From: Acidobacteriota bacterium
Lineage (GTDB): Bacteria > Acidobacteriota > Polarisedimenticolia > J045
DNA length: 42,881 nucleotides
Assembly (NCBI GenBank): GCA_003696075.1
Contig: RFHH01000141.1
Location: 1 to 42,881 of the forward strand
Direction of reading: 5' to 3'
Part shown: positions 3,732 through 23,459 of the stretch, piece after piece
Layout of the letters: each line of letters starts with the position of its first letter
Numbering within the stretch: position 1 is the stretch's first letter
Notes under the pieces: model-generated
Databases searched by the model: none
The model's input: only the letters and a program-made list of their open reading frames with translations
What the model was told of the DNA's origin: nothing
Position numbers and translations under genes: made by a program

Positions 3732-3732
3732 G

Positions 3733-7341: not shown

Positions 7342-9093
7342 TCAGGGGCCGGGGGCCGAGCGCATCGCGGCGCGCTCCTGCTCGATCCGCTCGAGCGAGA
7401 GCTGGCGGACCTTCAGCGCGAGCCCGATCAGCACCAGCACGATGACCACCAGCGAGACCGCCAGCCACCGGCGGCGCAGCTGGAGCTCCTCGAGCGCCTT
7501 CTTGCCGTAGTCCAGTGCCGCCGCGGCGTGCGCCTGGCCCTCCTCGAGCCCCTTGGCGAACTCGCTTCCCTCGGAGACGTCGAAGGTGTGGACCATCACT
7601 TCCAGGCCGATCTGGGCGTCCACGGCCTGCTCCAGTTCGCTCTGTCCCCGTCCGATCTCCACGCCGCCCCGGCGGGCCGCCAGCAGGGCCCGCTCCGCCC
7701 GGGCGCTCACGACGGTGAGCTGGGACATGCCCTCGACGAACTTCCGGGCCGTGCTCATGCCGACACCGTCGGGAGTGTCGGGGTGGCAGTCCGAGCAGCG
7801 GCGCACCCGCTCCTCGATCACCGCCCCGGTGTCGGGATCTTCGAACACGTGCTTCGTCTTGCCGATGCGGAACTTCGTCAGCAGGTTCGCGAACTCCGGC
7901 CGGAGGCGGCGCGGCTGTCCCTTCTCGCCCTCGAAGGTGTGGAATTCCAGCTCCTGAGAGCGATCGACCAACCAGTCGAAGCGGGCTTCACCGGTGAGGT
8001 TCTTCGAGGCCGCCTGGGCGAGCAGGCCATCGCGGACCTTCTCGTAGCGCTCCTTCGCTCCCGGCCGGTCGAAGGACGAACTCGCGGCGGCATTGATTCC
8101 CTCGTGGCAGAAGACGCACGGCGTCTCGGGAAGCGGCGCGAGCATCGCCACGCTCGGGCGGAGGACGGCGTGGTTGCTGTGGCAAACGACGCACTCGCTG
8201 AACTCGCGCACGTCGGTGCGCTGCGCCTGCGGGCTGCCCGGCTCGTGGCAGGAGGCGCACCCCTCCCCGCCCGCTTCGGCGAGAAACTCGTTGTGCCGCT
8301 GGAAACCGTCGTGTTTTCCGCTCGCCCGGAACAGCCGCGCCTCCCGGCCGTGACACTGCCCGCACACGAAGGCGACCGAGGCGATGCCCGGCGGGTTCGC
8401 TCCATGGTTGCCGTGGCAGTCGTTGCAGGTCGGGGCGAAGAGGTCCCCCTTCTCCAGCAGAGCCTTCGCGTGCACGCTCTGGCGCCAGCGTGCGTACTGG
8501 TCCGTCGGCAGAGGCCGCCCGTCGGCGGTCTTGTACCCTCTCATGTGTTCCGGATCCGCATGGCAGCTCCGGCACGTCTCCGCCACCCGCGTCGGGTAGA
8601 CGCTGGACTCCGCGTCGTCCTTGCCGCGGATCCCGTGGGCCCCGTGGCAGTCGATGCAGGTCGCCACCCGCTCGTCACCCTTCGCCAGGAGCTTCCCGTG
8701 GTGGCTCGTCCAGTACTCGCGCTCCTGGTCCACGCGGGCGTCGGGGCGAAAGCGGCGCATGTAGTCGGGATCCGAGTGGCACCGGCCGCAGAAGCGGGGA
8801 ATGTCGCGCCGCGCCGGCCGCCCGCGGTAGGGATTCCCGTCGAACCCCTCGTCCATCGCCGCGCCCGGATCGTCCGCGACCGCCGGGTCGGGGTTGCCCC
8901 CGTGGCAATCGTGGCAGGACAGGCCCGCCGCGGCGTGGACGCTCTGCGCCTCCTTCCGGACGAACTGCAGCATCTCCTCGTCGAAGAGCTCTTTGTCCTG
9001 GTGGCAGGTCAGACAGGAGCTCTGCTCCTGGGCTCCCGCCCAGGCGGTGGCCACCAGCGCCACTGCAGCGGCCGCAATCGCTCGCCTGTTCAC
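7342..9093 (-). CDS. Undecahaem cytochrome c with C-terminal membrane anchor (bc-complex partner)
   Basis: A 583-residue protein with a signal peptide (about 1-21), eleven CXXCH sites at residues 27, 60, 102, 146, 174, 223, 244, 279, 301, 326 and 433, a helical haem-free segment (about 440-540) and one C-terminal transmembrane helix (about 543-560) followed by a basic tail. The start is GTG at 9093, overlapping the cytochrome b stop (GTGA, 9090-9093); the frame is open further upstream but there it only overlaps cytochrome b. Being third after Rieske and cytochrome b, it occupies the place of cytochrome c1 or f and probably takes electrons from the Rieske centre and passes them to periplasmic carriers. 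That role is inferred from position. Confidence 0.9.
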
Positions 9094-10256
9094 TTTCGTC
9101 CCCTCATCGACGGGCGGTAGGTGCCCACGCCCAGCGCCGCGATCAGGGCCGCGGTCGCCAGCACGACCCAGATGGGCGCGAGGGAGTGGTAACCCCACGC
9201 CGTCATCACCACGACATAGACGACTCCGATGACCCCGACAGCAGTGAACCCGGGGCTCTTTCCCCGCGTGACGATTCCCCTGTCGAGAAACGGCACGAGC
9301 AGCAGGAGGAGCCCCACCAGACCGAAGCCCATGATCGGGATCGCCTCGTACTCGATGCCGAAGATCTCCCCGCCCGGAACCAGTTTCAGGGTCTGGAACA
9401 TGAACATGAAGTACCACTCCGGGCGGATGTTCTGATACGCCGGCGCGAACGGGTCCGCCTTCTCGCCCAGCTCCCAGGGGAAGAGGGCCGCGAGAGCGGC
9501 CAGGACGCCGAGCGCCATCGTCCACCCGAAGAGGTCGCGGAGGAGGAATCCGGGGAAGAACCGCATCGGACGCCGCAGCTTCCCCTCTCGCTCGATCTTG
9601 GGCGGAATGCTCATTCCCTGGAGCTGTACGAGAAGGAGATGCAGCCCCAGGACCGCGAACATCAGGGCGGGCAGGATGGCCACGTGCCAGCCGTAGAAAC
9701 GGGAGAGAGTGCCTCCCGTCACCCGGTCGCCGCCTCGGAGGAAGCGCAGCATGAACTCACCGACGATCGGCACCGATCCGGCGATGTCCGTGCCGACCTT
9801 GGTGGCGAAGAAGGCGAGCTTGTTCCACGGCAGGAGGTATCCGGAAAACCCGAACCCCATGGCGAGGAAGAGCGCGAGGCAGCCGGTCACCCACGTCAGC
9901 TCCCGCGGCTTGCGGTAGGCCTTCAGGAAGAAGACGCTCACCAGGTGGAGCATCGCGAAGTAGATCATCAAGTTCGCGGACCACGAGTGGATCGACCGGA
10001 TCAGCCAGCCGAAGGGGACCGTGGTCATGATGAACTCGACCGACTCGAAGGCCTCGTCCGCGGAGGGCCGGTAGTAGAGCATCAGCAGGATGCCGGTCAT
10101 CACCTGGCAGATGAAGAAGAACAGCGTCATCCCGCCGAGGTAGTAGAAGACGGTGTACTTGTGCACGGGGACCGTCTTCTTCGCCATCAGCTCCCGCACC
10201 GCGGACAGCGGCACGCGCTCGTCGAGCCAAGCCTGGACCTTCGCCGCAACGCTCAT
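9090..10256 (-). CDS. qcrB: Cytochrome b of a Rieske/cytochrome b complex, b6-type spacing
   Basis: A 388-residue polytopic protein with about eight transmembrane helices, combining the haem-binding N-terminal half and the C-terminal (subunit IV-like) half. Haem ligands are His90/His104 and His191/His206. The second pair is 15 residues apart, as in cytochrome b6, rather than 14 as in mitochondrial bc1. The quinol-site motif PEWY is at 279-282, inside [15 protein letters not shown]. It oxidises quinol at the outer face and passes electrons to the Rieske centre. It lies 4 nt after the Rieske gene and overlaps the undecahaem gene, so all three should be co-translated. The symbol follows bacterial usage; petB/petD-like naming would be equally defensible. 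Confidence 0.95.
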
Positions 10257-10260
10257 CGTG

Positions 10261-10725
10261 TCAGCTCCTCGAGATGACGATGCTCGGGGGCTGGCCCGCC
10301 CCCCGGCGCACGAGGTTGACCTTCAGCGGTGTCAGCGGCTTCGGGGGAGGTCCCGCAATGTTGCGCCCGCTGAGGTCGTACTGCCCGTCGTGGCAGTTGC
10401 ACCAGATCAGGCGCTTGTCCTTCCGGTACTCGACGATGCACTCGAGATGGGTGCAGGTCGCGGTGAAGGCCCGGAAATCGTTCTCGCCCGCCTTGATCAG
10501 GATCACCGGCTCGGCGCCGAACCGTACGATCTTGAACCCCTTCTCCGCCAGTTCCGGATCGGTGACCGGTCCGGCGTCGACCTCGTTGGTGGTCGCCTCC
10601 GGCATCTTCGGCGGACTGATGAACCTCAAGACGGGATACAGGATCGACAGAACCAGTGCGCCGACCGACGTGCCGAGAAACCAGTTGACGAAGCGCCGGC
10701 GCGTGGTGGACAAGGATGCGCTCAT
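10261..10725 (-). CDS. qcrA: Rieske [2Fe-2S] protein of the cytochrome b complex
   Basis: A 154-residue protein with a Tat-type N-terminus ([12 protein letters not shown], residues 7-18) forming the single membrane anchor, and a Rieske domain. Cluster ligands are Cys91/His93 in CTHLEC and Cys109/His112 in CNCHDG; Cys96 and Cys111 can form the usual disulfide. The usual CTHLGC has Glu in place of Gly, and the second box reads CNCHDG rather than CPCHGS. The ATG at 10725 is preferred over the upstream frame because GGGAGG lies about 9 nt before it and the Tat signal follows at once. First gene of the three-gene complex operon. Confidence 0.95.
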
Positions 10726-11326
10726 TCCGCGGGCCTCCCTTCGTCGCTCACCACGTCTTCGAGGATTCCGGCGCCCATCCGGGCGCCGCACGAACATCCC
10801 GGCCATCGCGGGCGGGCGGACGCTACCGAAGGAAACGCTTGCCTGTCAAGCGTCCGCTGGGGCCGGGCCCGACTCAGCCGGCGGCGGAGTGTAAAGCCTG
10901 TGGCGTCAGCTTGGTTTGATATGAGTCAAGCTTGCGCCTGCGCCCGCTCAGCGGCGAGCGCAGCGCCCTCGACGCCGGCCCGGAGCGGTGCTCGGCGGAT
11001 CGCGCTCCGGAACGGCCGCGGCCGCGGCGCGCCACCAGCCCCGCCGTCAGGACGCCGTCCCCCTCGTTCCCGTCGAACCGCTCGCTGCCGCACGAGCCGT
11101 TGGGAATGCCTGCCGGCACCGGGACGAGCGTCCGGGCGCGTCTTTTGGCCCCGCGGGACGACCCGCCCGGCGGGCGCGCGGGGCACCCGGGAAAAGGCCT
11201 TCGGGGCCCTGCCCTTTGAAGATCCGCGCGCACCGGCGCGCGGCGCGGGGGTCCGGGCACACCGGAAGCTTCGCCGCGGGGCGCTCCGGCGCCACCGGCC
11301 GGACGGATGTCGCGGCGCTTCCGCGG
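10726..11326. other. Intergenic region, about 600 nt, no gene seen
   Basis: It lies between the Rieske gene (its upstream side) and the end of the secreted unknown protein. Besides the candidate promoter at 10820-10849 I see an 8-bp hairpin, CCGGAGCG (10980-10987) with CGCTCCGG (11003-11010), which may terminate the cluster ending at 11327. An AT-richer patch lies at 10895-10930. I see no supported coding sequence. Confidence 0.5.
10820..10849 (-). promoter_or_regulatory. Candidate sigma70-like promoter for qcrA-qcrB-cytochrome operon
   Basis: On the minus strand TTGACA (10849-10844) is followed after 18 nt by TAGCGT (10825-10820), or after 17 nt by a poorer box. Transcription would start about 85 nt before the Rieske ATG. 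The -35 is perfect and the -10 poor. A similar arrangement (TTGACA, 17 nt, TAGTCT) precedes rplM at 38515-38543. Confidence 0.4.
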
Positions 11327-12070: not shown

Positions 12071-12646
12071 TCAGTGCTGGTACTTGAGCGGATAGTGTTC
12101 GTGGGTGCCCTTGTCCTTCCGCTCCTCGAAATTGAACGCGTACTTGCCGCCGTGGAAGGGGCTCTCTTCGTTGTGACAGGCGAGGCACTGCTTCTCCGAC
12201 ACCTTGTCCACCATACCGGCGGCCACCGCGTCGGCGTGCTTGAAGTTCTTGTTCTTGAGGCTCATCACGTCGGGCTTCGTGTAGTCCTTGCCCGCGCCGT
12301 GACACATTTCACAGCCGACGCCGGCACGGTCGGGCGTGGAGGCGATGTCCTTGAAGCCGCCGGGCTTTCCGTATCCCGTCGTGTGGCACTTCAGGCAGTT
12401 CGGATCGGTCGTGTAGTCCTTCTGAGGATCGAGCCCCGCCGCCTTCTTCGCCTCCGCCCGCTCGCCGGGCTTGAGGATGTCGAACGCCTTGGCCATGCGC
12501 GTCTGGGACCAGCTCTTCCACTGCTTGATGTGGCACTTCTTGCACGTCTTGGTCCCGACGAACTCGTGCTCCGCGGCGAGCGCCATACCGCCCGCGAGGA
12601 ACGCGAGTGCCGCGACCGCCGCGAAACCCTTGCGAATTCCGGTCAT
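12071..12646 (-). CDS. Cytochrome c554-like tetrahaem protein
   Basis: A 191-residue periplasmic protein: signal peptide about residues 1-25, then CXXCH at 35, 84, 112 and 154. The order FVGTKTCKKCH, QWKSWSQTRMAKAF, CLKCHTTGYGKPGGF and VGCEMCHGAGKDY matches the cytochrome c-554/c' family, known from ammonia oxidisers and many metal- or sulfur-cycling bacteria. The start at 12646 is chosen because AGGAGG lies 8 nt before it. It is separated from the preceding nine-haem gene by 139 nt with a weak promoter candidate, so it may be expressed partly on its own. No hydroxylamine oxidoreductase lies in the window, so a nitrification role is not supported; a soluble periplasmic shuttle fits the context. 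Confidence 0.9.
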   Translation of the reverse strand: MTGIRKGFAAVAALAFLAGGMALAAEHEFVGTKTCKKCHIKQWKSWSQTRMAKAFDILKPGERAEAKKAAGLDPQKDYTTDPNCLKCHTTGYGKPGGFKDIASTPDRAGVGCEMCHGAGKDYTKPDVMSLKNKNFKHADAVAAGMVDKVSEKQCLACHNEESPFHGGKYAFNFEERKDKGTHEHYPLKYQH

Positions 12647-12717
12647 TGCGTGCCTCCTGTCCCCCGCCGATCCGCGCGAAGGCGATCGGGCGGGGTGAAG
12701 CCTGTGTGGCCCACCTG

Positions 12718-12746
12718 ATTGTCCTAGACCAGGCGGATCCGCGCAA
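12718..12746 (-). promoter_or_regulatory. Weak promoter candidate upstream of c554-like gene
   Basis: Minus strand: TTGCGC (12746-12741), a 17-nt spacer, then GACAAT (12723-12718), about 70 nt before the ATG. Both boxes are imperfect; this is only a suggestion. Confidence 0.22.
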
Positions 12747-12785
12747 TGGAACATGGAACGTCATGCCTGTAAGCCGCTGCGGCGG

Positions 12786-13688
12786 TCACGAGCCGCCCGC
12801 GGCCGTTTCCGCGCCTCCGCGGTGGTACTCGCGCTGCTCGTGGCAAGCGACCGCGCAGCGGCCGCCGTCGGCAAGCGGCTCGTAGTCGATCGGAAGATCC
12901 CATTGGCCGAACGGGGCGCGGCTGCGGATCAGGTGGGCTGCCCCACCGTGCGGCGAGTGGCACAGAGCGCACGAGCGGCTCTTCTCGCGCGCCACGTGCA
13001 CGCGGTGAAGGTTCTTCTGCTCGTTCCGGAATCCGGTGTCCGCACCCTCTTCCAGCATCGTCTCGTCGTGGCAGGCGAAGCAGAGCGCGTAGCTTCCCTC
13101 CGCCCCGCGGGCGTAGGGGCCGTCCGGAAACGCGTCCGTCACGAGCCGGCCGTAGTCCGAGGCGTGCGGCGGATGGCAGGTGTCGCACCCCGCATCGACG
13201 GCGCCGTGCGGCAGCTCCGCCGTTTCGATCTCCTCCTTCACGTTCCTCACCGGGCGGCGCCCCTCCCACGTCTGCACGCGCCCGTGGCACCGCCAGCACA
13301 ACTCCGGCGAATCGGCCCGCAACAGCTTCCCGCGGTCCGACCGGTGCGGATCGTGGCACCCGGTGCAGCGGCCCGCCGCCACCGGGCCGTGCACGTGTCC
13401 CGTCATCCCCCCCGCCGGATCGTCGTGACAGCCGAGGCAGGTCTCGCCGATCGGGTCGGGCGTGTCGAAGGCGTGCCCGGTCGCCCGCGGCGTGTGGCAC
13501 AGGTCGCACGCCTCGTCCTCGACCGGCATGTGCACGACCGCCCCTTCCGCCAGGTTCGCATGGCAGCCGGAGGTCAGGCAGTTGCCCTCCCCGGCGTCCG
13601 GGGGCGGGGCCGCCTGCTGGGCGGCGGCCGGCCAGGCGGCGGCCAGCAGGAACGCGGCGACGCAGCGCCTAGTAGCTCTTCCGGTCAT
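12786..13688 (-). CDS. Nine-haem periplasmic cytochrome c (doubled-CXXCH type)
   Basis: A 300-residue protein with a signal peptide (about 1-24). It has seven CXXCH sites (residues 61, 84, 108, 131, 168, 203 and 240) plus two unusual ones: CX4CH at 37 (CLTSGCH) and CX3CH at 278 (CAVACH). The spacing of paired motifs with CHDPH-like and CHPPH-like sequences is that of the doubled-CXXCH family. The module GPVAAGRCTGCHDPHRS is closely matched by GPVAAGLCTACHLPHRS in the pentahaem lipoprotein of the same operon. The start overlaps the end of the 12-haem gene by 20 nt (13669-13688), so translation is coupled. The inferred role is a periplasmic electron carrier for the outer-membrane conduit. Confidence 0.88.
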   Translation of the reverse strand: MTGRATRRCVAAFLLAAAWPAAAQQAAPPPDAGEGNCLTSGCHANLAEGAVVHMPVEDEACDLCHTPRATGHAFDTPDPIGETCLGCHDDPAGGMTGHVHGPVAAGRCTGCHDPHRSDRGKLLRADSPELCWRCHGRVQTWEGRRPVRNVKEEIETAELPHGAVDAGCDTCHPPHASDYGRLVTDAFPDGPYARGAEGSYALCFACHDETMLEEGADTGFRNEQKNLHRVHVAREKSRSCALCHSPHGGAAHLIRSRAPFGQWDLPIDYEPLADGGRCAVACHEQREYHRGGAETAAGGS

Positions 13689-15351
13689 GGTCCTCCCCGT
13701 GGCATTTCAGCGAGCAGGATCCCCGGTGCGTGCCGAGGTCCTCGAACCGGAGGATCCCCTTCCTGTTGGGCGAGACGATGCGCGTGTCGAAGCTGATCAG
13801 ATGCGTGTTGCCGGTCGGATCTCCGGCGACCGACGAAACCCCGTGCGGGTCGTGGCAGGCCGAGCAAGGGGCGTCCTCGCCGACGACGTGCTTCTTGTGG
13901 AGCTTGAAGCCGCTCTGGTTCTTGCTCAGCAGGACACTGCGGCTGTGGCAGCGGTAGCACAGCGCGTAGGCCTGGCTGCTCTCCGGCGTGTAGTCGTCGG
14001 TGTCGTAGTTGAGCCGCAGGATGAACGGGTTGACGCTGCCGTGCGGGCCCTGCGAGCCGCCGCTGTCCGCCTGGTCCGAGGCGTGACAGTCGGTGCAGTA
14101 GATCTGGCTCGACTCGGTCAGCGGCGGGATCAGCGACGGAACGTCCGGGTTCTTGCCCGGTTGGGCGACCGGGTGGAACGAGATGGCGTCCGGCGCGAAC
14201 TCGAGGCGCGTGTTGATCTCCCCCGCCGTCCTCGGTATCGCCTGAGTGGCGTTGGTCGTGTCGGCGTGGCACTTGAAGCAGACCTCGTACATGAACTGCA
14301 CCGGCTTCACCGGCTGTCCGTCGATGTCGATTCCGCTGGTTCCGCGCAGCGCCCCCGAGGCCGCCGGTGGCGAGGCCGGCGCGTGCCACGCCTGGTGCGG
14401 CTCGTGGCAGTCGGCACACTCGACGTGCCGCGCCATCAGGAACGGATCCTCGTCCGGCTCGTGCACGCCCTGCGTCACGTCGATGGGATGCGTGTAGCTC
14501 TTCTGGAACTCGGCTTGGATGTCGAGCGTCGCCACGTGACCGTTGTGGCAGGCGTAGCAGGCCTCCTCCTCCGGCGCGCGCTTGACCAGCCGCTCCGGCT
14601 GCGCCGCCGTGTGCGGCGTGTGGCACGACCGGCAGGCGTTGTCGGCGACGGTGCGGTCCGACGACCCCGGCCAGGGATCCGGCGGGGTGCCGTCCCATTG
14701 GGCCGTCGAGGTCGCATGGACCGACGTGTCCCAGTTGGTCTTGTCGTGGCAGGAGGTGCACAGCTGGCCGCCGGTGTCCGACGTGAGGAGGAACTTGCCG
14801 TAGGTGTCGTCGTGCGGGTCGTGGCACGAGGTGCACTGGAGCTGCGAGCTGCTGTCCAGATGGACGGGCGGCGGGATCGCCTGAGGGTCGCGCAGCTCCG
14901 GGTCCTGCGAGACCAAACCCGAGTCGTACACGAAGGAGATCGGGTGGTCGTCACCCAGGTCCGTCCCGAGGCTCCCCGTCGTCTCGTCCAGGTAGCGGTG
15001 GCCCGCCGGGAACTCGATCTCCGACGGCTCGGAGTGCAGATCCCCCAGCGCCACCGTCCCGTCGTGGCAGGACAGGCACATCCGGCTCGCGCCGGTGGGC
15101 TGGTCCGGCAGCGCGTCGAGAGTGGTCGAGTCGTAGAGGAGATAGGTCGCGGTGCTGTCCTCGCGGTTCCACAGCGGCGCCTGCGTGCGGGCCCGGTGCG
15201 GGGCGTGGCAGAAGATGCAGATGCGCTCCTCGGTCAGCGCCTTGACCTCGCCCGGTCCCGTGGTGCCCAGGTTGTGCTTCGTCTGGTCGATGCCGGCCAG
15301 CGCCGTGGCGCAACCGGCCGCCAGCAGCGCTGCACCCCAGCGGATCCTCAT
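13669..15351 (-). CDS. Twelve-haem secreted cytochrome c
   Basis: A 560-residue protein with a signal peptide (about 1-20), eleven CXXCH sites (residues 45, 92, 173, 198, 240, 265, 312, 358, 419, 465 and 496) and a CX3CH at 546 (CSLKCH). The first ~200 residues resemble the whole tetrahaem cytochrome at 20079-20771: ICxxCHxPH, then a Leu-Trp-Asn motif, TLDA...PTG.S.MCL.CHDGTVA, then HP.S.VYD and QC.SCHD.H. The rest is an added eight-haem region. ATGA overlap (15348-15351) with the preceding NHL gene. No membrane anchor or lipobox is obvious, so it is exported to the periplasm and possibly beyond. An extracellular or outer-surface role is inference. Confidence 0.9.
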   Translation of the reverse strand: MRIRWGAALLAAGCATALAGIDQTKHNLGTTGPGEVKALTEERICIFCHAPHRARTQAPLWNREDSTATYLLYDSTTLDALPDQPTGASRMCLSCHDGTVALGDLHSEPSEIEFPAGHRYLDETTGSLGTDLGDDHPISFVYDSGLVSQDPELRDPQAIPPPVHLDSSSQLQCTSCHDPHDDTYGKFLLTSDTGGQLCTSCHDKTNWDTSVHATSTAQWDGTPPDPWPGSSDRTVADNACRSCHTPHTAAQPERLVKRAPEEEACYACHNGHVATLDIQAEFQKSYTHPIDVTQGVHEPDEDPFLMARHVECADCHEPHQAWHAPASPPAASGALRGTSGIDIDGQPVKPVQFMYEVCFKCHADTTNATQAIPRTAGEINTRLEFAPDAISFHPVAQPGKNPDVPSLIPPLTESSQIYCTDCHASDQADSGGSQGPHGSVNPFILRLNYDTDDYTPESSQAYALCYRCHSRSVLLSKNQSGFKLHKKHVVGEDAPCSACHDPHGVSSVAGDPTGNTHLISFDTRIVSPNRKGILRFEDLGTHRGSCSLKCHGEDHDRKSY

Positions 15352-16304
15352 GCTCCTTCTCCCAGCATCCGGAAGACCTGCACGCGGTGGTTGTAGGCGT
15401 CGGCCACGAAGAGGCGGCCCTCCGGACCGATCGCGACGCCGGCCGGCATCCAGAACTGGCCCGGGCCGCGACCGCGCCGGCCCACGGCGAGCAGGAGGCG
15501 CCCCTCCGGGTCGAAGATCTGCACGTTGTCGAACAGGGCGTCGGCCACGAAGATCCTCCCCTCGCCGTCCACGCCGAGTCCCCGGGGCCTCGAGAAGGTC
15601 CCCGGACCGTCACCGGCGAATCCGAACGACGAGACCGGCGTTCCCGCCGCATCCAGAATCTGGACGCGGAAGTTCATGGCGTCGAGAACGAACAGGCGGC
15701 CGCGGGGACCGACGGCGACGTCGATCGGGTAGTTGAACTGCCCGGGACCGGATCCCCGGCCGCCGATGGCCGCCACCCGGCGGCCCTCGAGATCGAGGGC
15801 GACGATGCGGTGGCCGAGAGCGTCGGCCACCCACAGCCGGTCGCGGTTCCGGTCCAGCGCCATCCCCGTCGGGCGCTCGATTGCGTCGGCAGCCGTCCGC
15901 CACAGCTCCTCGCCCCGCGCGTCGAAAGCGACCACGCTTCCCGCCGCGGAGTCGGCGACGAAGAGCCGGTCGCCGAGCAGGACGCAGTCGATCGGGCTGA
16001 CGAGGTGCCGCCGCCCCACCGCCCGGCCGGGCCGGCCCGGGTCGTGCAGCCACACGACCCGCGCCCCGGGATCGGCCACGCAGACACGGCCCTCCGGCCC
16101 GACGCCGACCCCGTGGGGACGCACGTAACCCCGGCCCCGGGCGGCGTACTCGCCGGACCACGCCACGCGCGGGCGGGCCGGAGGAGAGGGCCAGACCGGG
16201 CCCGGCCCCTCCGCCGCCCGGTAGGCGGGGGCACGGACGCTTCCGCATCCCAGCGACGCGGCCACGACGGCCGCGGCGATCGCCGTGACGGCGGCCAGCC
16301 TCAC
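15348..16304 (-). CDS. NHL-repeat six-bladed beta-propeller protein, exported
   Basis: A 318-residue protein. The N-terminus is a signal with a possible, non-ideal lipobox (ASLGC, Cys at about 20). The remainder has NHL repeats with recurring phrases such as YVRPHGVGVGPEGRVCVAD, PIDVAVGPRGRLFVLDAMNFRVQI, RPRGLGVDGEGRIFVAD and MPAGVAIGPEGRLFVADAYNHRVQV, consistent with a six-bladed propeller. The GTG start at 16304 overlaps the stop of the beta-barrel gene (16301-16304) and has GAGGAGG about 12 nt upstream; the longer open frame upstream is antisense-like coding noise. NHL propellers are commonly encoded next to outer-surface multihaem cytochromes and are thought to act in assembly or binding; which applies here is unknown. 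Confidence 0.87.
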   Translation of the reverse strand: MRLAAVTAIAAAVVAASLGCGSVRAPAYRAAEGPGPVWPSPPARPRVAWSGEYAARGRGYVRPHGVGVGPEGRVCVADPGARVVWLHDPGRPGRAVGRRHLVSPIDCVLLGDRLFVADSAAGSVVAFDARGEELWRTAADAIERPTGMALDRNRDRLWVADALGHRIVALDLEGRRVAAIGGRGSGPGQFNYPIDVAVGPRGRLFVLDAMNFRVQILDAAGTPVSSFGFAGDGPGTFSRPRGLGVDGEGRIFVADALFDNVQIFDPEGRLLLAVGRRGRGPGQFWMPAGVAIGPEGRLFVADAYNHRVQVFRMLGEGA

Positions 16305-18250
16305 CGGAAGTACCTCCTCAAGAGCAGGACGACCTCGTCGCGGTCGTCTCGCCCCGAAAGCTCGATGTCCTGCAGGCGCCGGCGCGCCCGGGCGACCAGT
16401 TCGAAGGCCCGGAACCGCCAGTCGAGCTGCAGGTGGGCTTCGAAGTAACGTCCCTCCCGGTCGAGCACGAATTCGTCCCACCGGTCCAGCCCCGCCGTCA
16501 GCCGCGTCCGGCGCAACCGCAGCCTCAGGTCGACGCCAGCCCGTTCGAGGTCGATCCGCTCGCCGGGGCGGTCGGGGAACGTCGTCCTCTGCTTCATCGC
16601 GTCGAAGTCGAACTGGAGGAATCGCGTCTCCACGATCCCCCACCTCAGCGACGCGTTCCAGCGGGCGAACGGCAGGATGAAGCTCTTCTTGGTGTGCCGC
16701 GTGCCCTCGATCTGCCACCTCCGCCGGCTCACGCCGCCGGAATAGATCTTCTCCAGAGTCTGGTCGATCCGGCCGTCCGGCGTTCCGGCGATGAGGTCCT
16801 GCGCCTGCTTGGTCCGGCTGAGCCGGAACCAGACCCCGCTCCGGTCCCGCCACCCCAGCAGGTACCGGTTCGACCGGGTCCTCACGTCGAGCGCCGGGCT
16901 GGTGGTGACCGCGAAACGGACGAGGATCGTGTCGCCGGCCTGGATCGCGCTGCCCGGGAGGATCCGCAGCTCGACCACGCCGCCCGCCGCGAGAACCTCG
17001 TAATCGATCCCCTCCGTGTAGACGACCGTTCCGGTGACGTCGGTGACCTCGATCGTGTCGGGCTCGATCCCCGGCGTGTCGAGGAGGATCGGCAGCCCGT
17101 CCTCCACCAGGTGCTCTTCGGAGACGATCCTGCGGCGCGCGGGGAGATCCTGGTCGTCCCGGCGCAGCCGGCGGCCCACGGCCAGGTGGAGGGTGCCGGC
17201 GGTGAGGTGGCGCGTGTAGTCGAGCCCCGCGCGGTACTCGCGGAGGGTTTCGGTCCCGGCCTCCGGAAGATCGGTGTCCTGCAGGTCGGCCGCCGCCGTG
17301 GTGACCAGCGAGCCCCACAGCCGGTGCTCGAGCCCGATCGAACCGCGCCGCGTCACGAGGCGCCCCAGGAGGTCCTCCTGCTCCAGGCGCTCGAGCCGGC
17401 CCCCGAGCTGGAAATCGTCGTTCGGGCGCCACTCGACCGACTCCGCGCCGATCGCGTAGCGGAAATCGGCGGTTCCCGCCCGGTCGTAACCGAAGAGGGT
17501 CGTGTTGAACGTCAGCGTGCGGGAGGCGAGGGCGCGGTAACGGTGGGAGAGCGAAACGCGGACCTGCCGGTAGTCCTGGCGCGTGGAGCGCTCGACATAG
17601 TCCTGGAGCTCGCTCTCCAGCCGCATGGTGGAGAACCGCCCCCGCTGGTCGAGCTGGAATCCCCAGCTCGTGCGCCGCTCGTCCCGCGGGTCCCCCTCGA
17701 TCCCTTCGGTCCGCGCGCGGTCGGCGTAGAAAGTGAGGGGCCAGACGCGCGAGCGGCGGCGGAGAGTGGCCCGGAGCTCGCGGCGCAGGACGCGCCTCGT
17801 CGGGGCAAACGTGCTGTCGATGTCCTGGATGGACTGGTGGCCGGTGATCTCCCCGTTCCAGCGGAAGGCCGGCGCGATCCCGAGGCGCACCCGGTACTGG
17901 CTGGCATCGGCGTTCCTCGAGCCCTGGAACACGCCGGTGTTGGCGTCGATCTCGCTCCGCCGCAGCCGCAGCGTGCCACCCACCGAGAACGGCAGCAGGG
18001 ACGGGTGCAGGAACGACCCGGTGATGTCTCCGCCGATCCCGTACAGCAGCGCCCCCTCCTCCTGCCGGAACAGCTGCCCGTCGACCGGAGGCTCCCTCTC
18101 CTGCCGCTCGAAGTCGTAGCCCAGCTCGAGGAAGCCGGTGGCGTCCCGGAACCGCACGGGACGGACCAGGCGGACCGCCTGCCCGTACGCGTCGCTCCCG
18201 GCCAGTGCGGCCAGGACGAGCGCCGCCAGCACCGCACCCGGCCGCCTCAC
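16301..18250 (-). CDS. Outer-membrane beta-barrel (porin-like), candidate electron-conduit sheath
   Basis: A 649-residue protein with a signal peptide (about 1-24, ending AYGQA). The mature part is made of alternating amphipathic segments of 10-12 residues rich in Arg, Glu, Tyr and Phe (for example FLELGYDFER, GGTLRLRRSEID, RVRLGIAPAFRW, LTFNTTLFGYD, FEAHLQLDWRF), as expected for a large beta-barrel. A non-barrel insert around residues 375-440 looks like an immunoglobulin-like domain (IEVTDVTGTVVYTEGIDY). The sequence ends YFR rather than with a terminal Phe, so the usual C-terminal barrel signal is imperfect. It is flanked by haem proteins with stop/start overlaps on both sides, which suggests a porin-cytochrome conduit. 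The barrel is inferred from sequence pattern only. Confidence 0.8.
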   Translation of the reverse strand: MRRPGAVLAALVLAALAGSDAYGQAVRLVRPVRFRDATGFLELGYDFERQEREPPVDGQLFRQEEGALLYGIGGDITGSFLHPSLLPFSVGGTLRLRRSEIDANTGVFQGSRNADASQYRVRLGIAPAFRWNGEITGHQSIQDIDSTFAPTRRVLRRELRATLRRRSRVWPLTFYADRARTEGIEGDPRDERRTSWGFQLDQRGRFSTMRLESELQDYVERSTRQDYRQVRVSLSHRYRALASRTLTFNTTLFGYDRAGTADFRYAIGAESVEWRPNDDFQLGGRLERLEQEDLLGRLVTRRGSIGLEHRLWGSLVTTAAADLQDTDLPEAGTETLREYRAGLDYTRHLTAGTLHLAVGRRLRRDDQDLPARRRIVSEEHLVEDGLPILLDTPGIEPDTIEVTDVTGTVVYTEGIDYEVLAAGGVVELRILPGSAIQAGDTILVRFAVTTSPALDVRTRSNRYLLGWRDRSGVWFRLSRTKQAQDLIAGTPDGRIDQTLEKIYSGGVSRRRWQIEGTRHTKKSFILPFARWNASLRWGIVETRFLQFDFDAMKQRTTFPDRPGERIDLERAGVDLRLRLRRTRLTAGLDRWDEFVLDREGRYFEAHLQLDWRFRAFELVARARRRLQDIELSGRDDRDEVVLLLRRYFR

Positions 18251-18906
18251 GGCCCCCTCCCCCCCATCAGAGGCGCGTGCGGGTCGTGACAGTCGAGACA
18301 GCCGGCCCCCTCCGGCACGGGCGGGCCGGTGAGGTGGCTTTCGCCGTGACACCCGAGGCAGATCGTCTCCGGAGCCGCTCGCAGCAGCTTGACCTCGCGG
18401 CTCCGGTGGGGAAGGTGGCAGGCCGTGCACAGCCCGGCCGCTACCGGACCGTGCCAGCGGACGTCGTCTCCCCAGGTGAGGCCGGCGCGCAGGGTGCGCC
18501 GCTCGTGGCACGACACGCACAGCTTCTCGACCGGGCGCCGCAGGCGCGCCGCTTCGGCGCCCTGGGCCGGGTTCGCTCCGGTCGCGGCCACGTGGCACGC
18601 CTGGCACAGCCGGGCGGCCACGGGACCGTGCTGGGAGCCCCGCCAGACCGGCCGCGGCACCCGCCGCGCTTTCCGGGCGGTCTGGGGTGGGGCCGGATTG
18701 GCCCGGGCCCTCTCCTCCTCGCGGGCCCGTCGCTTGCTCGGCGGGTCGTCGAACAGCGCTTCGAGCACCTTCTGGCGGGAAGCCGCGCTGCACCCGGCAG
18801 CGCCCGCCACCAGCGGGACGAGCAGAAGGCACGACAGCAACCGCACCGCGGCGCGGCGACCGGTCCGCCCCCGCGGAACGGCGGCCCCACGCCGCGGCCG
18901 GCTCAC
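18247..18906 (-). CDS. Pentahaem cytochrome c lipoprotein
   Basis: A 219-residue protein with an N-terminal signal and lipobox GAAGC (Cys39), a charged Arg/Glu/Ala linker (about 50-85) and five CXXCH sites at residues 101, 130, 160, 183 and 203. The paired modules GPVAARLCQACH and GPVAAGLCTACH show internal duplication of the doubled-CXXCH type. Lipid anchoring would place it at the inner face of the outer membrane or on the cell surface, next to the beta-barrel encoded immediately downstream (GTGA overlap 18247-18250). By analogy with porin-cytochrome complexes it could be the periplasmic plug that feeds electrons into the barrel; that is inference. GTG start, overlapping the preceding stop by 4 nt. 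Confidence 0.87.
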   Translation of the reverse strand: MSRPRRGAAVPRGRTGRRAAVRLLSCLLLVPLVAGAAGCSAASRQKVLEALFDDPPSKRRAREEERARANPAPPQTARKARRVPRPVWRGSQHGPVAARLCQACHVAATGANPAQGAEAARLRRPVEKLCVSCHERRTLRAGLTWGDDVRWHGPVAAGLCTACHLPHRSREVKLLRAAPETICLGCHGESHLTGPPVPEGAGCLDCHDPHAPLMGGRGP

Positions 18907-20009
18907 GATCCCTTCCCCTCGCGTCCCGCCCCCTCTCCGGCCGGATCGCCGAAGACGTAGATGTTCAGTTTGTGCGGGCCGCTCTGGTTGGTGACGAGAA
19001 CGAGGTACTTCGGCTTCAGCTTCGGTGAAATGCGGTGCTTGAAGTAGCCGAGCAGCGAGCGGTCGATCGTGATCTCGAACGGCAGGTACATGTGGCCGGC
19101 GAAGTTCCCGTAGCCGCCGTAGAAAGTCGCCGGCTGGCCGTCCGGCAGGAAGATCTGCGCGTTCTCGAAGCCGGCGTCCAGGACGTGGACCAGGCCCTCC
19201 TCGTCCACCGCCACCCCCTTGGGGCGCGTGAAGCTCCCGGTCCAGTCGCCGAGCTTGCCGAAGGAGGCGAGCGGCTCCCCCTCGGGGGTCAACTTCTGGA
19301 CGCGGAAGTTCATCGAATCGGTGACGTAGAGGTTCCCGTCGGGGGCGGCATAGATGGCCACCGGGTACTTGAACTTGCCCGGCTCCGCCCCCTCGCCGCC
19401 GAGGGTGCCGACCTTTCGGCCGGTCTCCTTGTCGAAGACCTCGATCTCGTGGTCCTTGGCGTCGGTGACGTACAGCCTGTCGCCGAGGACGGCGACGTCG
19501 GTCGGACGGAGCTCGTCGGGGTTTCCGTATCCCTTGAGGACCGCTCCCGTCTCCGTGTCGTAGGCGACGACCTGGCTCCGGCCGGCGTCGGCGACGAAGA
19601 GGCGGCCTTCGTCGTCGATGTCGAGGCCGAGGGGGTTGCCGAGGCCCTCGGCGAAAAGGTCGAACCGCTTGCCGGGCAGGTCGATGCGGACGATCGCTCC
19701 GAGGCGGCCGTCCGCGACATAGATCACGCCGTCATGGACACCCACCCCGCGCGGCCGCACGAGCTGCCGCGTGGGCGCGTCTCCGAGAAGGGCGGCGGTG
19801 AGACCCTTGCGCAGGCCCGGGACGTCCTTGTCGGACGTCACGGCCATCAGGAACTGCAGCCGGGGCTCGTCGGGCGGGGGCGGGAAGAAACCCTCCTGGG
19901 GGCCGGGTTTCTTCGTCTCGACACTCGCGCAGCCGGCGATGCCGGCCGCCAGCAACACGAGCGCCGCCGTCCGTCCCCGCGGACGGGCCCGCTTCGTCGT
20001 CTTCTTCAT
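18903..20009 (-). CDS. NHL-repeat beta-propeller lipoprotein
   Basis: A 368-residue protein with a lipoprotein signal (KKTTKR..., lipobox GIAGC, Cys at about 27), a Pro-rich spacer and an NHL beta-propeller with repeats such as RPRGVGVHDGVIYVAD, NPLGLDIDDEGRLFVAD, YPVAIYAAPDGNLYVTDSMNFRVQ and RPKGVAVDEEGLVHVLD. Its C-terminus (about residues 300-350) adds a non-repeat segment with KLKPKYLVLVTNQSGPHKLNIYVFG. The start at 20009 is chosen because it gives a normal lipoprotein signal; its ribosome site is weak, and a start at 20069 is possible. It is a paralogue of the NHL protein at 15348-16304. GTGA overlap with the pentahaem lipoprotein gene. Confidence 0.86.
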   Translation of the reverse strand: MKKTTKRARPRGRTAALVLLAAGIAGCASVETKKPGPQEGFFPPPPDEPRLQFLMAVTSDKDVPGLRKGLTAALLGDAPTRQLVRPRGVGVHDGVIYVADGRLGAIVRIDLPGKRFDLFAEGLGNPLGLDIDDEGRLFVADAGRSQVVAYDTETGAVLKGYGNPDELRPTDVAVLGDRLYVTDAKDHEIEVFDKETGRKVGTLGGEGAEPGKFKYPVAIYAAPDGNLYVTDSMNFRVQKLTPEGEPLASFGKLGDWTGSFTRPKGVAVDEEGLVHVLDAGFENAQIFLPDGQPATFYGGYGNFAGHMYLPFEITIDRSLLGYFKHRISPKLKPKYLVLVTNQSGPHKLNIYVFGDPAGEGAGREGKGS

Positions 20010-20078
20010 GGGATTCGCCCTAACGCGCCGGGGAAGGGGCCGCGCGGGCTCCGGCCCCTCTCCCCTCATGGCGCAAGG

Positions 20079-20771
20079 CTACTTCGCGTGGCAGGTCAGG
20101 CACAGACCGGACGGGCTCCCGCCCTGATTGGTGGTCTGCGCGACGCGAAGGAGGTGCGTGTTCGGCACCGCCTCGCCCGGGCTGTCGTGCACGTCGTGGC
20201 ACGAGCTGCACTGGACCTTGCCGTTCTGGAGGACGTCGGCGATCGTCCCGGAGGTCCCCATCGGATCGGTCTTCGGGTGCAGGCCGGGATCCGCGTTCTC
20301 GTCGTAGACGATCGACAGCGGGTGCGTGGCCCGCAGGTCGGTGCCCTCACCGCCCGGGACGTTCGGGATCCGGGCATCCGGATCCTCGTCCTGGATGTAG
20401 AGCGTGCCGCCGCTTCCGATGTTCTTGTCGAACTCGTCGATGGCGACCGTGCCGTCGTGGCAGCCGAGGCACATCTTGCTGATGCCGGTCGGCTCGGCAT
20501 CGATCGCGCCGTCGAGCGTGTCCGACGAGTACATGGTGTAGGCATGGTTCGGCAGCGCGTGGTTCCACAGCAGGCCGACGAGGCCGATGTCCCGGCCGTG
20601 GTCGTGCGGCACGTGGCAGACCCGGCAGATCTCCTGGCGGAAGTTCCACGACTCCGCCGAGAAGTCGTGCGGGCTGCCGACGATGCCGTTGCCGGACCCG
20701 TTGGCGAGCGCCGCCGGCGCGACGAGCAACGCAAGGGCACAAGCGGCGTACAGCAGCTTGGGGGTTCTCAT
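20079..20771 (-). CDS. Secreted tetrahaem cytochrome c, first gene of the conduit cluster
   Basis: A 230-residue protein: signal peptide about 1-23, then CXXCH at residues 49, 101, 188 and 224. Other marks are GSPHDFS near the mature N-terminus, ICRVCHVPH, LLWNHALP, TLDGAIDAEPTGISKMCLGCHDGTVAID and HPLSIVYDENAD. It matches the first third of the 12-haem protein downstream in the operon. The size, four haems and neighbourhood of NHL propellers recall OmcE-like cytochromes that polymerise outside the cell, but I cannot confirm this by comparison. ATG start with GGGAGG upstream; a candidate promoter and a 14-bp inverted repeat lie in the leader. The next gene begins 69 nt later. Confidence 0.89.
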   Translation of the reverse strand: MRTPKLLYAACALALLVAPAALANGSGNGIVGSPHDFSAESWNFRQEICRVCHVPHDHGRDIGLVGLLWNHALPNHAYTMYSSDTLDGAIDAEPTGISKMCLGCHDGTVAIDEFDKNIGSGGTLYIQDEDPDARIPNVPGGEGTDLRATHPLSIVYDENADPGLHPKTDPMGTSGTIADVLQNGKVQCSSCHDVHDSPGEAVPNTHLLRVAQTTNQGGSPSGLCLTCHAK

Positions 20772-20837
20772 GGTGGTTTCGCCCTCCCGGTGCCCGGCCC
20801 CGGGGCCGAGCACGGATTACGAGTTGGACCTTGAGTT

Positions 20838-20888
20838 GGGAAAGGAACGCCAAACCGTTTCCGGCTGGCCCGCGGGCGTTCCTTTCCC
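20838..20888. repeat. 14-bp perfect inverted repeat in cytochrome-cluster leader
   Basis: GGGAAAGGAACGCC (20838-20851) and GGCGTTCCTTTCCC (20875-20888) are exact reverse complements separated by 23 nt. It lies about 67 nt before the ATG of the tetrahaem gene and just downstream of a TATAAT box on that strand. It may be an mRNA leader hairpin or a two-half-site operator. Confidence 0.7.
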
Positions 20889-20906
20889 CGTTCCTCTGCG
20901 CCGGGA

Positions 20907-20948
20907 ATTATACTACTAAATGGTCACATAATCCTAATTAGTTATACA
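20907..20948. promoter_or_regulatory. AT-rich divergent promoter region
   Basis: This is one of the few AT-rich patches in the window (about 20905-20955) and it lies between divergent operons. On the minus strand there is a perfect TATAAT (20912-20907) with no good -35. On the plus strand TGGTCA (20921-20926), 16 nt, then TATACA (20943-20948) could drive resB, leaving a leader of about 140 nt. Confidence 0.4.
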
Positions 20949-21098
20949 CTTTTTTCGACCGGCCGGGACGGCGGCGAGGGCCCCCCGGCCCAGGGGTCCG
21001 GGGCCGTTTGCCCCAGCCGGGAGCGGAAGGTAAAACCAACCCTTCCAGCCCGGTTTGAGGCACCCCCCATACGACACACCTCGAAGAGAGGTTTCCTC

Positions 21099-23459
21099 AT
21101 GTCCATCAGGAATCCGAATCGACCCGGCGGCGCGGCCGCCGCGGCCCCGCGGGGCGCGCTCGATCGCATCCTCGACGCGGTCGGCAGCCTCACGTTCGGC
21201 ATCGTCATCATGACCGCGATCCTGATCTACTGCTGGATCGGATCCGCGGGCTTCGCCCCCTTCTCCGACTGGTTCGTCCGGCAATCGTTCGAAAAGACGG
21301 AGATGGAGTGGTTCAACTGGTGGCCGTTCCACGTGCTGCTGGCCCTGATGTGCCTTTCGCTCGTGGTGGCCACCGTGAGGAAGGTCCGCCTCGATCTGCC
21401 GCACCTGGGCCTGTGGCTCACCCACGGCGGGATCCTCGTGGTGGTGCTCGGCACCGTCTATTACTTCGGCATGAAGCGCGAGGGCGACGTCCTCGTGTAC
21501 CGGCGCCAGGCCGTCATCACCCTCCCCGGCGGTTCTCCCGCGGCGATGACGTTGCGCCCCGGGGAAGCGGTGACCGTCCGCGGCGAGGGCAAGGCCTACC
21601 GCGTGCAGGTGGCCGACCTCAATCCGCACTACCGGCTCCGCTCCGGCGACGACGCCGGCAAGGAGACCTACGCGGCGCAGCTCTTCTTCCAGCCGCTGGA
21701 GGGGGATGCCCATCCCTTCATCCGGCAGCTCCTGGTGGGCTACCCGCAATACACGGAGGATGTCCTCCCGGGCCGCGGGCGGGCGGTCAAGGTGACCGGC
21801 GAGAAGCTCGTCGACAAGGACGTCGAGGTCGAGCTGAGGTACGCCCCCGCCGACCGGATCTACCTGCGGGACACCGCTGCGATCCACGTGCGGCCGGCGG
21901 GCGCCGGGGACGATGCGTGGATCGAACTTCCGGTTCCCGGCCTGCCGCACTACAACGAATACGCGCTCGCCGCGGCGGACGTGGTCGTCCCGCCCGGCGA
22001 GGAGCACCCGCTGCGCCGCCTGGAAATCCCGGTGGACGCCTCTCCGGCGGCACGACTGCTCGGTGAGGGCACGCGGGTCCGCGTGACCGGGTTCCTGCCG
22101 TTCGCGCATCTCGAGGAGCGGTGGGAGCCGGGCGGCGACGAGTTCCACCCTCTCATGCGCTTCGCGCTCCACATCGGCAACACCAATGCGAGCGGAACGC
22201 TCCACGCCGACGCGCCGCATCCGCATCACGTCCAGGTGGGGCGCCAACTGCTCGACGTCTCCTTCAAGTGGATCGAGTCGCAGGAGGAGCTCGACCGATT
22301 GATCGCTCCCGGCCCGTCGACGCTCGTCGTCTCGGTCCCCGAGCGGCACGTGACGCGGCGGATTCGCCTCGCCGATGCCCAGGAACGGGCGGTGGCGGTT
22401 CCGGGAACCGGGTACAAGCTCCAGGTCCTGGAGGTGCAGCCGCACTGGACGCTGGCCGGCGAGGAGGGCGGCGTGGCGTCGATGGTGCTCGTCCGCGTGA
22501 CGAAGGGCGACCGCAGCTTCCTCCGGGCGGTCGTGACGCCCCAGGTCGAACTCTCGCAGGACATCGACGAGAGCGGACACCAGGCGGGCCGAATCCTCGA
22601 CGATTCGATCCGCATCGAGGTGGAGAACCTCTCCTTGCCCGGCCTCACGCTGGTCGCCGGGCCCGTCGGGCTGCACGCGATCGTCGTCGACGGCGCCGGC
22701 CAGGTGACTCACAGGCCGGCGAAGCTGGGCGTGCCGGTGGTGTTCCCCTTCGACGATCTCCAGGTGACGATCGCGGCGGTCAGCGAGAAGGCGAGGAAGG
22801 TGCTGCGGCCGGTGGTGATTCCGTGGCGCGAGCGCGACCGGAAGGCCGGCATGGCGTACGCCGCGGTGCAGGTCGAGATCGCGGGCCCGCAGGGCGCCGA
22901 GCGCTATTGGGTGCGCTACAGCCACTACGCGCATCCCAGCCGGGCCGGGTTCTTCCCGCAGCGGGTGACGCTCCCCGACGGCCGGGCCATCGAGCTGCTC
23001 TTCTCCCGCCGCACGCTGCCCCTCCCCGCGCCGGTGGCGCTGGAGGCGTTCCAGCTCGAAACGTACACCGGCGGAACGCGGGAGCGGGACTACATCAGCC
23101 TGGTCCGCTTCCGCGAGGACGGCGGCTGGTCCGACATCAAGGAGATCCGCAGCAACCAGCCGACCGCCTACCGCGGCTGGTGGTTCTTCCAGAGCACCTG
23201 GGATCCGCCCGTTCCCCAGGCCAACTACGCCGGCATGAACTACACGGGGCTCGGTGTCGGCAATCGGCACGGCGTCGCGATCATGCTCTGGGGGAGCCTG
23301 CTCACCGTTTTCGGCACCTTCTGGGCCTTCTACATCAAGCCGATCCTGCTCCGCCGGAGGCGCGCGGCCGAAGCCGTCGCGGCGCCCGCGGCGCCGGCCC
23401 CCGAACCGGAGCTCGAACCGGTGGCCGTCGGCGGCTCGACGAGCCGGTCGGACGCGTGA
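21099..23459 (+). CDS. resB: ResB/Ccs1-family cytochrome c biogenesis protein
   Basis: A 786-residue membrane protein. Three N-terminal transmembrane helices (about residues 28-50, 73-92 and 105-125, the third containing the LWLTHGG histidine) are followed by a large periplasmic domain (about 130-715) and one more helix near the C-terminus (about 725-750, MLWGSLLTVFGTFWAFYI). This is the layout of ResB, the partner of CcsA in system II cytochrome c maturation, which delivers haem to CXXCH apocytochromes outside the membrane. It is longer than the typical 450-650 residues. The ATG follows GAAGAGAGG. It is 16 nt before ccsA and divergent from the cytochrome cluster it probably serves. No CcdA/ResA thiol protein is visible here. 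Confidence 0.88.
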   Translation: MSIRNPNRPGGAAAAAPRGALDRILDAVGSLTFGIVIMTAILIYCWIGSAGFAPFSDWFVRQSFEKTEMEWFNWWPFHVLLALMCLSLVVATVRKVRLDLPHLGLWLTHGGILVVVLGTVYYFGMKREGDVLVYRRQAVITLPGGSPAAMTLRPGEAVTVRGEGKAYRVQVADLNPHYRLRSGDDAGKETYAAQLFFQPLEGDAHPFIRQLLVGYPQYTEDVLPGRGRAVKVTGEKLVDKDVEVELRYAPADRIYLRDTAAIHVRPAGAGDDAWIELPVPGLPHYNEYALAAADVVVPPGEEHPLRRLEIPVDASPAARLLGEGTRVRVTGFLPFAHLEERWEPGGDEFHPLMRFALHIGNTNASGTLHADAPHPHHVQVGRQLLDVSFKWIESQEELDRLIAPGPSTLVVSVPERHVTRRIRLADAQERAVAVPGTGYKLQVLEVQPHWTLAGEEGGVASMVLVRVTKGDRSFLRAVVTPQVELSQDIDESGHQAGRILDDSIRIEVENLSLPGLTLVAGPVGLHAIVVDGAGQVTHRPAKLGVPVVFPFDDLQVTIAAVSEKARKVLRPVVIPWRERDRKAGMAYAAVQVEIAGPQGAERYWVRYSHYAHPSRAGFFPQRVTLPDGRAIELLFSRRTLPLPAPVALEAFQLETYTGGTRERDYISLVRFREDGGWSDIKEIRSNQPTAYRGWWFFQSTWDPPVPQANYAGMNYTGLGVGNRHGVAIMLWGSLLTVFGTFWAFYIKPILLRRRRAAEAVAAPAAPAPEPELEPVAVGGSTSRSDA

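What the first reader, a model, noticed from the sequence alone, without database searches (positions are those of the whole stretch)
12786..20009. Six translationally coupled genes for a trans-outer-membrane electron conduit with beta-propellers
Seen: 4-nt overlaps at 18903-18906, 18247-18250, 16301-16304 and 15348-15351 and a 20-nt overlap at 13669-13688 join NHL lipoprotein, pentahaem lipoprotein, beta-barrel, NHL protein, 12-haem and 9-haem cytochromes. Known: porin-cytochrome complexes pair a barrel with a periplasmic and a surface cytochrome. Adding two NHL propellers in one coupled chain suggests a distinct, possibly undescribed conduit type.
Basis: partly seen in the sequence, partly recalled or inferred. 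Interest (0 to 1): 0.72.

Follow-up and report, generated by a model that had tools for sequence, protein, structure and literature searches.

The report
Outer-membrane wire with nanowire-like cytochromes
An uncultivated Acidobacteriota bacterium carries a tight seven-gene cassette that looks like a complete electrical outlet through its outer membrane (a barrel, haem proteins that resemble a known bacterial nanowire, and two propeller proteins each paired with a nanowire-like protein); the same cassette recurs across about a dozen bacterial phyla, and a close relative, Uet, has already been described.

Summary
In detail: five gene junctions overlap by exactly 4, 4, 4, 4 and 20 nt, and a relative (G004) has the identical five.

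The 649-aa protein models as a 28-strand outer-membrane barrel (pLDDT 92); the closest solved fold is MtrB. The '12-haem' protein is an OmcE-nanowire-fold module (1.9 A over 178 residues to OmcE) fused to an octahaem part; all 12 haem motifs and 12 further histidines are invariant in 75 homologues.

Of 53 complete loci from about a dozen phyla, 32 have the same gene order. Where order changes, two pairs stay together: propeller 1 with the tetrahaem, propeller 2 with the dodecahaem. The propellers are two ancient clades.

So this is a trans-outer-membrane conduit, but not an undescribed type: the Uet cluster (Tenderiales, Gallionella) already combines a barrel, tetrahaem, 'undecahaem' and two NHL proteins. 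The window is a variant with a pentahaem lipoprotein and nonahaem in place of Uet's trihaems, isomerase and TPR protein. New here: the OmcE module in the dodecahaem, and one propeller per OmcE-fold protein, suggesting a nanowire with its base. Function is inferred.

The parts
   Evidence: phmmer to OmcE 7tfs E 3.9e-9 and 9yuq E 7.7e-7; 4 haem His and 4 further His (35, 56, 150, 195) 98-100% conserved in 47 sequences; upstream neighbour of NHL1 in most relatives
18903..20009 (-). NHL1: NHL beta-propeller lipoprotein (P0002; lipobox IAGC)
   Evidence: Pfam NHL 6.5e-25; own clade distinct from NHL2; beside the tetrahaem in 52 of 61 relatives
18247..18906 (-). pentahaem lipoprotein (P0003; lipobox AAGC), Paired_CXXCH, MtrA-like
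   Evidence: Pfam PF09699 7.9e-23; nearest solved chain MtrA 6r2q_A E 2e-4; 5 haem His and 4 distal His invariant in 39 sequences
16301..18250 (-). outer-membrane beta-barrel, 649 aa, GTG start (P0004)
   Evidence: AF2 with 60 homologues: pLDDT 92.0, 28 long strands; Foldseek best hit MtrB 6r2q_B E 1.6e-9, VIA Z 20.0, rmsd 8.4, 432 residues; homologues mostly end in Phe
15348..16304 (-). NHL2: NHL beta-propeller lipoprotein (P0005; lipobox SLGC)
   Evidence: Pfam NHL 7.7e-33; next to the 12-haem gene in 72 of 86 relatives
13669..15351 (-). dodecahaem cytochrome (P0006): residues about 25-204 OmcE fold, 205-560 octahaem part; UetJ-like
   Evidence: 7tfs phmmer E 1.3e-31; AF2 pLDDT 92.1, pTM 0.88; residues 25-203 superpose on OmcE, Z 15.9, 1.9 A, 178 residues; 12 haem His + 12 other His 100% conserved in 75 sequences
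12786..13688 (-). nonahaem periplasmic-type cytochrome (P0007), MtrA-like; most relatives have about 13 CXXCH (15 CX2-4CH)
   Evidence: Pfam PF09699 2.4e-32; nearest solved chain MtrA 6r2q_A E 1.3e-7
12071..12646 (-). c554-type tetrahaem cytochrome (P0008), downstream neighbour, probably not a core part
   Evidence: Pfam PF13435 8e-28
20772..21098 (.). A+T-richer divergent intergenic region, the likely promoter region of the cassette
   Evidence: sequence; no consensus sigma-70 site found; inference

Best explanation
The seven genes 20771 to 12786 encode one trans-outer-membrane electron conduit with its extracellular, nanowire-type cytochromes: a Uet-like system of the pentahaem/nonahaem variety. 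Electrons pass between the periplasm and the surface along MtrA-like cytochromes (nonahaem, then pentahaem lipoprotein) housed in or docked to the 28-strand barrel, reach the dodecahaem protein outside, and from its OmcE-fold module pass to the tetrahaem OmcE-type protein, which by homology may polymerise into a filament. Each NHL lipoprotein is the dedicated partner of one OmcE-fold cytochrome (NHL1 of the tetrahaem, NHL2 of the dodecahaem), most likely as an assembly, export or docking factor. Shown: gene content, overlaps, barrel fold (model), OmcE fold of the dodecahaem's N-terminal module (model and sequence), invariant haem ligands, conserved pairing and synteny. Inferred: localisation, complex formation, which cytochrome sits in the barrel, polymerisation, NHL function, and the direction of electron flow.
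For: Barrel model and MtrB match; pentahaem and nonahaem nearest to MtrA; OmcE homology of P0001 and P0006; 12 of 12 haem and 12 of 12 distal His invariant; synteny in 53 complete loci of about a dozen phyla, 32 canonical; in the 21 rearranged loci NHL2-dodecahaem stays adjacent in 20 and tetrahaem-NHL1 in 19, and NHL1 is never beside the dodecahaem; NHL1 and NHL2 split cleanly (1 misfit of 146); second cassette in the same genome with the same logic; neighbouring Rieske/cytochrome b/11-haem genes, a Mo-oxidoreductase/FeS/pentahaem module and a ResB-like cytochrome c maturation gene fit an electron-transfer island; the published Uet cluster has the matching core.
Against: No experiment on this lineage. 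No complex was modelled, so docking of pentahaem or nonahaem in the barrel is untested. VIA Z for MtrB (20.0) is only slightly above TonB-dependent barrels (18.6), so the fold says 'large OM barrel', not proof of an electron conduit. Deleting cytochromes of NHL-containing clusters in Desulfovibrio ferrophilus did not impair Fe(III) oxide reduction, though homology to this cassette was not tested. NHL-cytochrome adjacency could in part reflect inherited gene order.
Confidence: 0.72

Rival explanations
1. A plain MtrCAB-type porin-cytochrome conduit in which the OmcE-like proteins are ordinary surface cytochromes and never polymerise; the NHL proteins merely bind minerals or the cell surface.
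For: Barrel nearest MtrB, two cytochromes nearest MtrA. An earlier author suggested NHL proteins might bind mineral nanocrystals. OmcE fold alone does not prove polymerisation.
Against: Two OmcE-fold proteins per cassette and the pairing of each with its own NHL clade are not expected if NHLs only bind minerals; no MtrC-family surface cytochrome above cut-off.
Confidence: 0.25
2. The cassette works inward: it takes up electrons from outside (Fe(II), electrode, partner cell), as proposed for Uet in cathode-grown Tenderia and iron-oxidising Gallionella.
For: Uet literature is about electron uptake; the genome has two haem-copper oxidase genes.
Against: Conduits of the Mto/Mtr sort are described as reversible; the only RuBisCO match is weak and partial, so autotrophy is not indicated; relatives include Geobacteraceae such as Geomonas.
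Confidence: 0.3
3. The barrel serves mainly to export the cytochromes or NHL proteins to the surface, and electron transfer across the membrane is secondary or absent.
For: The NHL and OmcE-fold proteins must reach the surface by some route, and OM barrels of this size include export and assembly channels among structural matches.
Against: The pentahaem MtrA-like lipoprotein gene directly precedes the barrel gene in 48 places among the 50 loci that have it, as expected for a cytochrome-plugged barrel.
Confidence: 0.1

Closest known systems
Uet (undecahaem electron transfer) cluster, uetABCDEFGHIJ, of Tenderiales; also Gallionella
   Same: Barrel, extracellular tetrahaem, 'undecahaem' (11 CXXCH) cytochrome, two NHL proteins. 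Trihaem-bearing, Uet-like loci of Gammaproteobacteria (L128, L129) encode homologues of the window's barrel, NHL2 and dodecahaem.
   Different: Window has a pentahaem lipoprotein and nonahaem and lacks the trihaems (UetDEG), peptidylprolyl isomerase (UetB) and the TPR gene. Direct sequence comparison with Tenderia itself was not possible.
OmcE tetrahaem nanowire of Geobacter sulfurreducens (PDB 7tfs)
   Same: Fold and haem spacing of P0001 and of residues 25-204 of P0006.
   Different: In P0006 the OmcE module is fused to an octahaem part with no close solved fold found; polymerisation unknown.
MtrCAB / MtoAB porin-cytochrome complexes (PDB 6r2q)
   Same: Barrel closest to MtrB; pentahaem and nonahaem closest to MtrA.
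   Different: 28 strands in the model (MtrB has 26, from general knowledge); the MtrA role is probably shared by two proteins; no MtrC-family member; NHL propellers added.
Geoalkalibacter ferrihydriticus locus Ga0056053_02426-02431 and Desulfovibrio ferrophilus DFE_0448-0451 / 0461-0465
   Same: Multihaem cytochromes (an OmcE homologue in Geoalkalibacter) beside NHL proteins.
   Different: No barrel gene was reported there; homology to this cassette not tested here.

Membership tests
Uet conduit (uetABCDEFGHIJ) | extracellular tetrahaem cytochrome (UetA) | tested here: met
   P0001, 4 CXXCH, OmcE-type, secreted; extracellular location itself not tested
Uet conduit (uetABCDEFGHIJ) | beta-barrel porin (UetC) | tested here: met
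   P0004 model; homologous barrel in trihaem-bearing gammaproteobacterial loci
Uet conduit (uetABCDEFGHIJ) | undecahaem cytochrome (UetJ) | tested here: met
   P0006 has 11 CXXCH plus an invariant CX3CH; homologues in Uet-like loci
Uet conduit (uetABCDEFGHIJ) | two NHL proteins (UetH, UetI) | tested here: met
   P0002 and P0005
Uet conduit (uetABCDEFGHIJ) | three periplasmic trihaem cytochromes (UetD, E, G) | tested here: not met
   none in the window; pentahaem and nonahaem instead
Uet conduit (uetABCDEFGHIJ) | peptidylprolyl isomerase (UetB) and TPR protein (UetF) in the cluster | tested here: not met
   the eight genes of 12071-20771 fill the stretch; none matches
Uet conduit (uetABCDEFGHIJ) | sequence homology to the Tenderia proteins themselves | not tested
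   the defining paper is not held and no Tenderia record was identified
OmcE-type nanowire | tetrahaem OmcE fold with bis-His haems | tested here: met
OmcE-type nanowire | polymerises into an extracellular filament | not testable with these tools
   needs cryo-EM
MtrCAB/MtoAB | MtrB-type barrel | tested here: inconclusive
   best match, but Z 20.0 against 18.6 for unrelated barrels
MtrCAB/MtoAB | MtrA/DmsE-family decahaem plug | tested here: not met
   P0003 and P0007 hit TIGR03508 only below its cut-off (33.9 and 53.0 vs 192.2 bits)
MtrCAB/MtoAB | OmcA/MtrC-family surface decahaem lipoprotein | tested here: not met
   no cassette protein reaches the TIGR03507 cut-off
Geobacter OmbB-OmaB-OmcB / Ext conduits | homology to their barrel and cytochromes | not tested
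   no such sequences were compared

The most novel reading that the evidence does not exclude
If so, it shows how an OmcE-type filament is anchored and charged, in about a dozen phyla.
Probability: 0.33. Interest if true: 0.8.

Novelty: new variant of a known kind. Interest (0 to 1): 0.5.

Why it matters
How extracellular cytochrome filaments are connected to, exported through and charged across the outer membrane is, to my knowledge, unresolved. This cassette links a barrel, MtrA-like cytochromes, an OmcE-fold adaptor and an OmcE-type subunit in one operon in about a dozen phyla, including culturable strains (Geomonas paludis, Desulforhopalus sp. IMCC35007, Aestuariivivens sediminis), which makes the question directly testable. 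It also shows that the 'undecahaem' protein is a dodecahaem, and it suggests that extracellular electron transfer may be missed in genomes annotated only by MtrCAB or Omb-Oma-Omc markers.

Tried and rejected
Viral contigs hold no relative. The 'phage tail tube' hit to the barrel (NF052337, 33.5 bits, cut-off 60) covers only the roughly 80-residue insert and is rejected as an annotation. A pentahaem-nonahaem fusion in Verrucomicrobia looked like a Rosetta-stone link but is better read as repeat expansion of the doubled-CXXCH unit. PCC3/PCC4 have no NHL proteins in the text and were set aside. Consensus promoters: none found. The Uet paper and the OmcE paper themselves are not held. A search of 369 genomes of the class of a Thiohalobacter MAG for a Tenderia-like locus gave trihaem-bearing relatives (L128, L129) but no identified Tenderia. 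Pfam gave no family for the barrel. The octahaem part of P0006 had no clear solved match in the whole-model search; it was not folded alone.
Full report
OBSERVATION. The six genes lie on the minus strand at the stated places. The junctions read GTGA, GTGA, GTGA, ATGA (4-nt overlaps) and a 20-nt overlap between the 12-haem and 9-haem genes, each with a purine-rich stretch just before the start. Genome G004 of the same family has exactly the same five overlaps, 4/4/4/4/20, and three further genomes keep most of them. The overlaps are therefore real and conserved. A seventh gene, 20079-20771, ends 69 nt before the first NHL gene and is part of the same cassette in relatives. The window lies in a 3.3-Mb genome in 231 contigs. 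One relative listed as 'same phylum' (G044) has the same best-hit coordinates as the genome behind L084, a record titled 'Acidobacteria bacterium', so the phylum is taken to be Acidobacteriota.

PARTS. P0001 (tetrahaem) and the first 204 residues of P0006 (12-haem) match the OmcE nanowire of Geobacter (7tfs), with E 3.9e-9 and 1.3e-31. The AF2 model of P0006 (75 sequences, pLDDT 92.1, pTM 0.88) has residues 25-203 on OmcE at 1.9 A over 178 residues, Z 15.9 (Foldseek E 2.7e-11); the octahaem remainder found no close solved relative. In 75 sequences all 12 haem-motif histidines, including the C-terminal CX3CH, and exactly 12 further histidines are invariant, which indicates twelve bis-His haems; the usual 'undecahaem' count misses one. 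P0004 has no Pfam family, but the model is a 28-strand barrel with an insert at about 373-453 (pLDDT 92.0). MtrB of the Mtr complex is the best solved match both by Foldseek (E 1.6e-9) and VIA (Z 20.0, rmsd 8.4, 432 residues), though other large barrels are close behind. P0003 (pentahaem, lipobox) and P0007 (nonahaem) have MtrA as nearest solved sequence. P0002 and P0005 are NHL propellers, both with a lipobox.

SYNTENY. Profiles of each gene show NHL2-dodecahaem adjacency in 72 places, tetrahaem-NHL1 48, pentahaem-barrel 48, barrel-NHL2 45 and NHL1-pentahaem 42. Of 53 loci with the five core genes, 32 are in the window's order; in the 21 others the modules are moved or inverted, but NHL2-dodecahaem stays together in 20 (not L077) and tetrahaem-NHL1 in 19 (not L041, L078). 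NHL1 is never beside the dodecahaem. NHL1 and NHL2 are two clades with one misfit of 146. The same genome holds a second cassette on contig 64: NHL, tetrahaem, a candidate barrel gene (553 aa, not matched by the barrel profile), NHL2, 12-haem, 8-haem. In the phylum 22 of 297 genomes carry the 12-haem protein. Loci were ranked by similarity to the query and are not independent, so these counts describe, and do not test, the pairing.

MECHANISM. The simplest reading is a conduit: periplasmic nonahaem to pentahaem lipoprotein in or at the barrel, to the dodecahaem outside, to the tetrahaem. That the dodecahaem carries an OmcE module, and that both OmcE-fold proteins own a separate NHL protein, suggests that the dodecahaem is the junction between conduit and nanowire-type protein and that the NHLs serve assembly, export or docking. 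Localisation, stoichiometry, filament formation and direction are inferred. The surroundings fit an electron-transfer island: Rieske (10261-10806), cytochrome b (9090-10256) and an 11-haem cytochrome (7342-9525) on the same strand, a pentahaem/molybdopterin/FeS module at 196-3731, and a ResB-like gene at 21099. The genome has two haem-copper oxidases and only a weak partial RuBisCO match.

KNOWN. The Uet cluster of Tenderiales and Gallionella has barrel, tetrahaem, undecahaem, two NHL proteins, trihaems and a peptidylprolyl isomerase (PMC10734462; PMC12575090; UetJ also in PMC13386937; trihaems, a TPR gene and an undecahaem with nearby locus tags in PMC5371394). Gammaproteobacterial loci with trihaems beside the barrel encode homologues of the window's barrel, NHL2 and dodecahaem (L128, L129), which links the two kinds. 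Geoalkalibacter has an OmcE homologue with two NHL proteins (PMC12016550); Desulfovibrio ferrophilus has NHL genes in cytochrome clusters whose deletion did not stop Fe(III) oxide reduction (PMC9769857). Hence: a new variant of a known kind. The pairing rule and the OmcE module in the UetJ-like protein were not mentioned in the papers I could read, but the primary Uet and OmcE papers were not available, so priority is not claimed.

Noticed in passing
G000 contig C64, locus L106 3760-11149: Second, divergent cassette in the same genome: NHL, tetrahaem OmcE-like, candidate barrel gene of 553 aa (not matched by the barrel profile), NHL2, 12-haem, 8-haem.
   Followed up: partly
window 7342-10806 (-): Rieske, cytochrome b and an 11-haem cytochrome in a row: a bc-type complex with a multihaem partner, possibly the quinol-side donor of the conduit.
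   Followed up: partly
window 196-6272 (+): Pentahaem c7-type cytochrome, molybdopterin oxidoreductase, 4Fe-4S protein and a cytochrome c protein: looks like an alternative complex III or Qrc-like module.
   Followed up: partly
window 21099-23459 (+): ResB-like cytochrome c maturation gene divergent from the cassette.
   Followed up: no
A4 (75 homologues of P0006): 'Undecahaem' UetJ-type proteins have an invariant twelfth CX3CH haem that CXXCH counts miss.
   Followed up: yes
L030 5148-6833, L058 4855-6789, L096 2979-4841: In Verrucomicrobiota the pentahaem lipoprotein is expanded to 18-21 haems by repeats of the doubled-CXXCH unit, in the same place before the barrel.
   Followed up: partly
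L026, L036, L047, L121, L122: Gammaproteobacterial cassettes lack the pentahaem and are followed by 8-, 7- and 3-haem cytochromes, another NHL2-type protein and an 18-24-haem cytochrome: again an NHL protein beside a large cytochrome.
   Followed up: no
G321 (genome of L084): One Acidobacteriota genome has ten places matching the 12-haem profile, nine of them only its OmcE-like N-terminal region.
   Followed up: no
P0003 family: Five invariant haems but only four invariant distal histidines, so one haem may be ligated by something else or be open.
   Followed up: no
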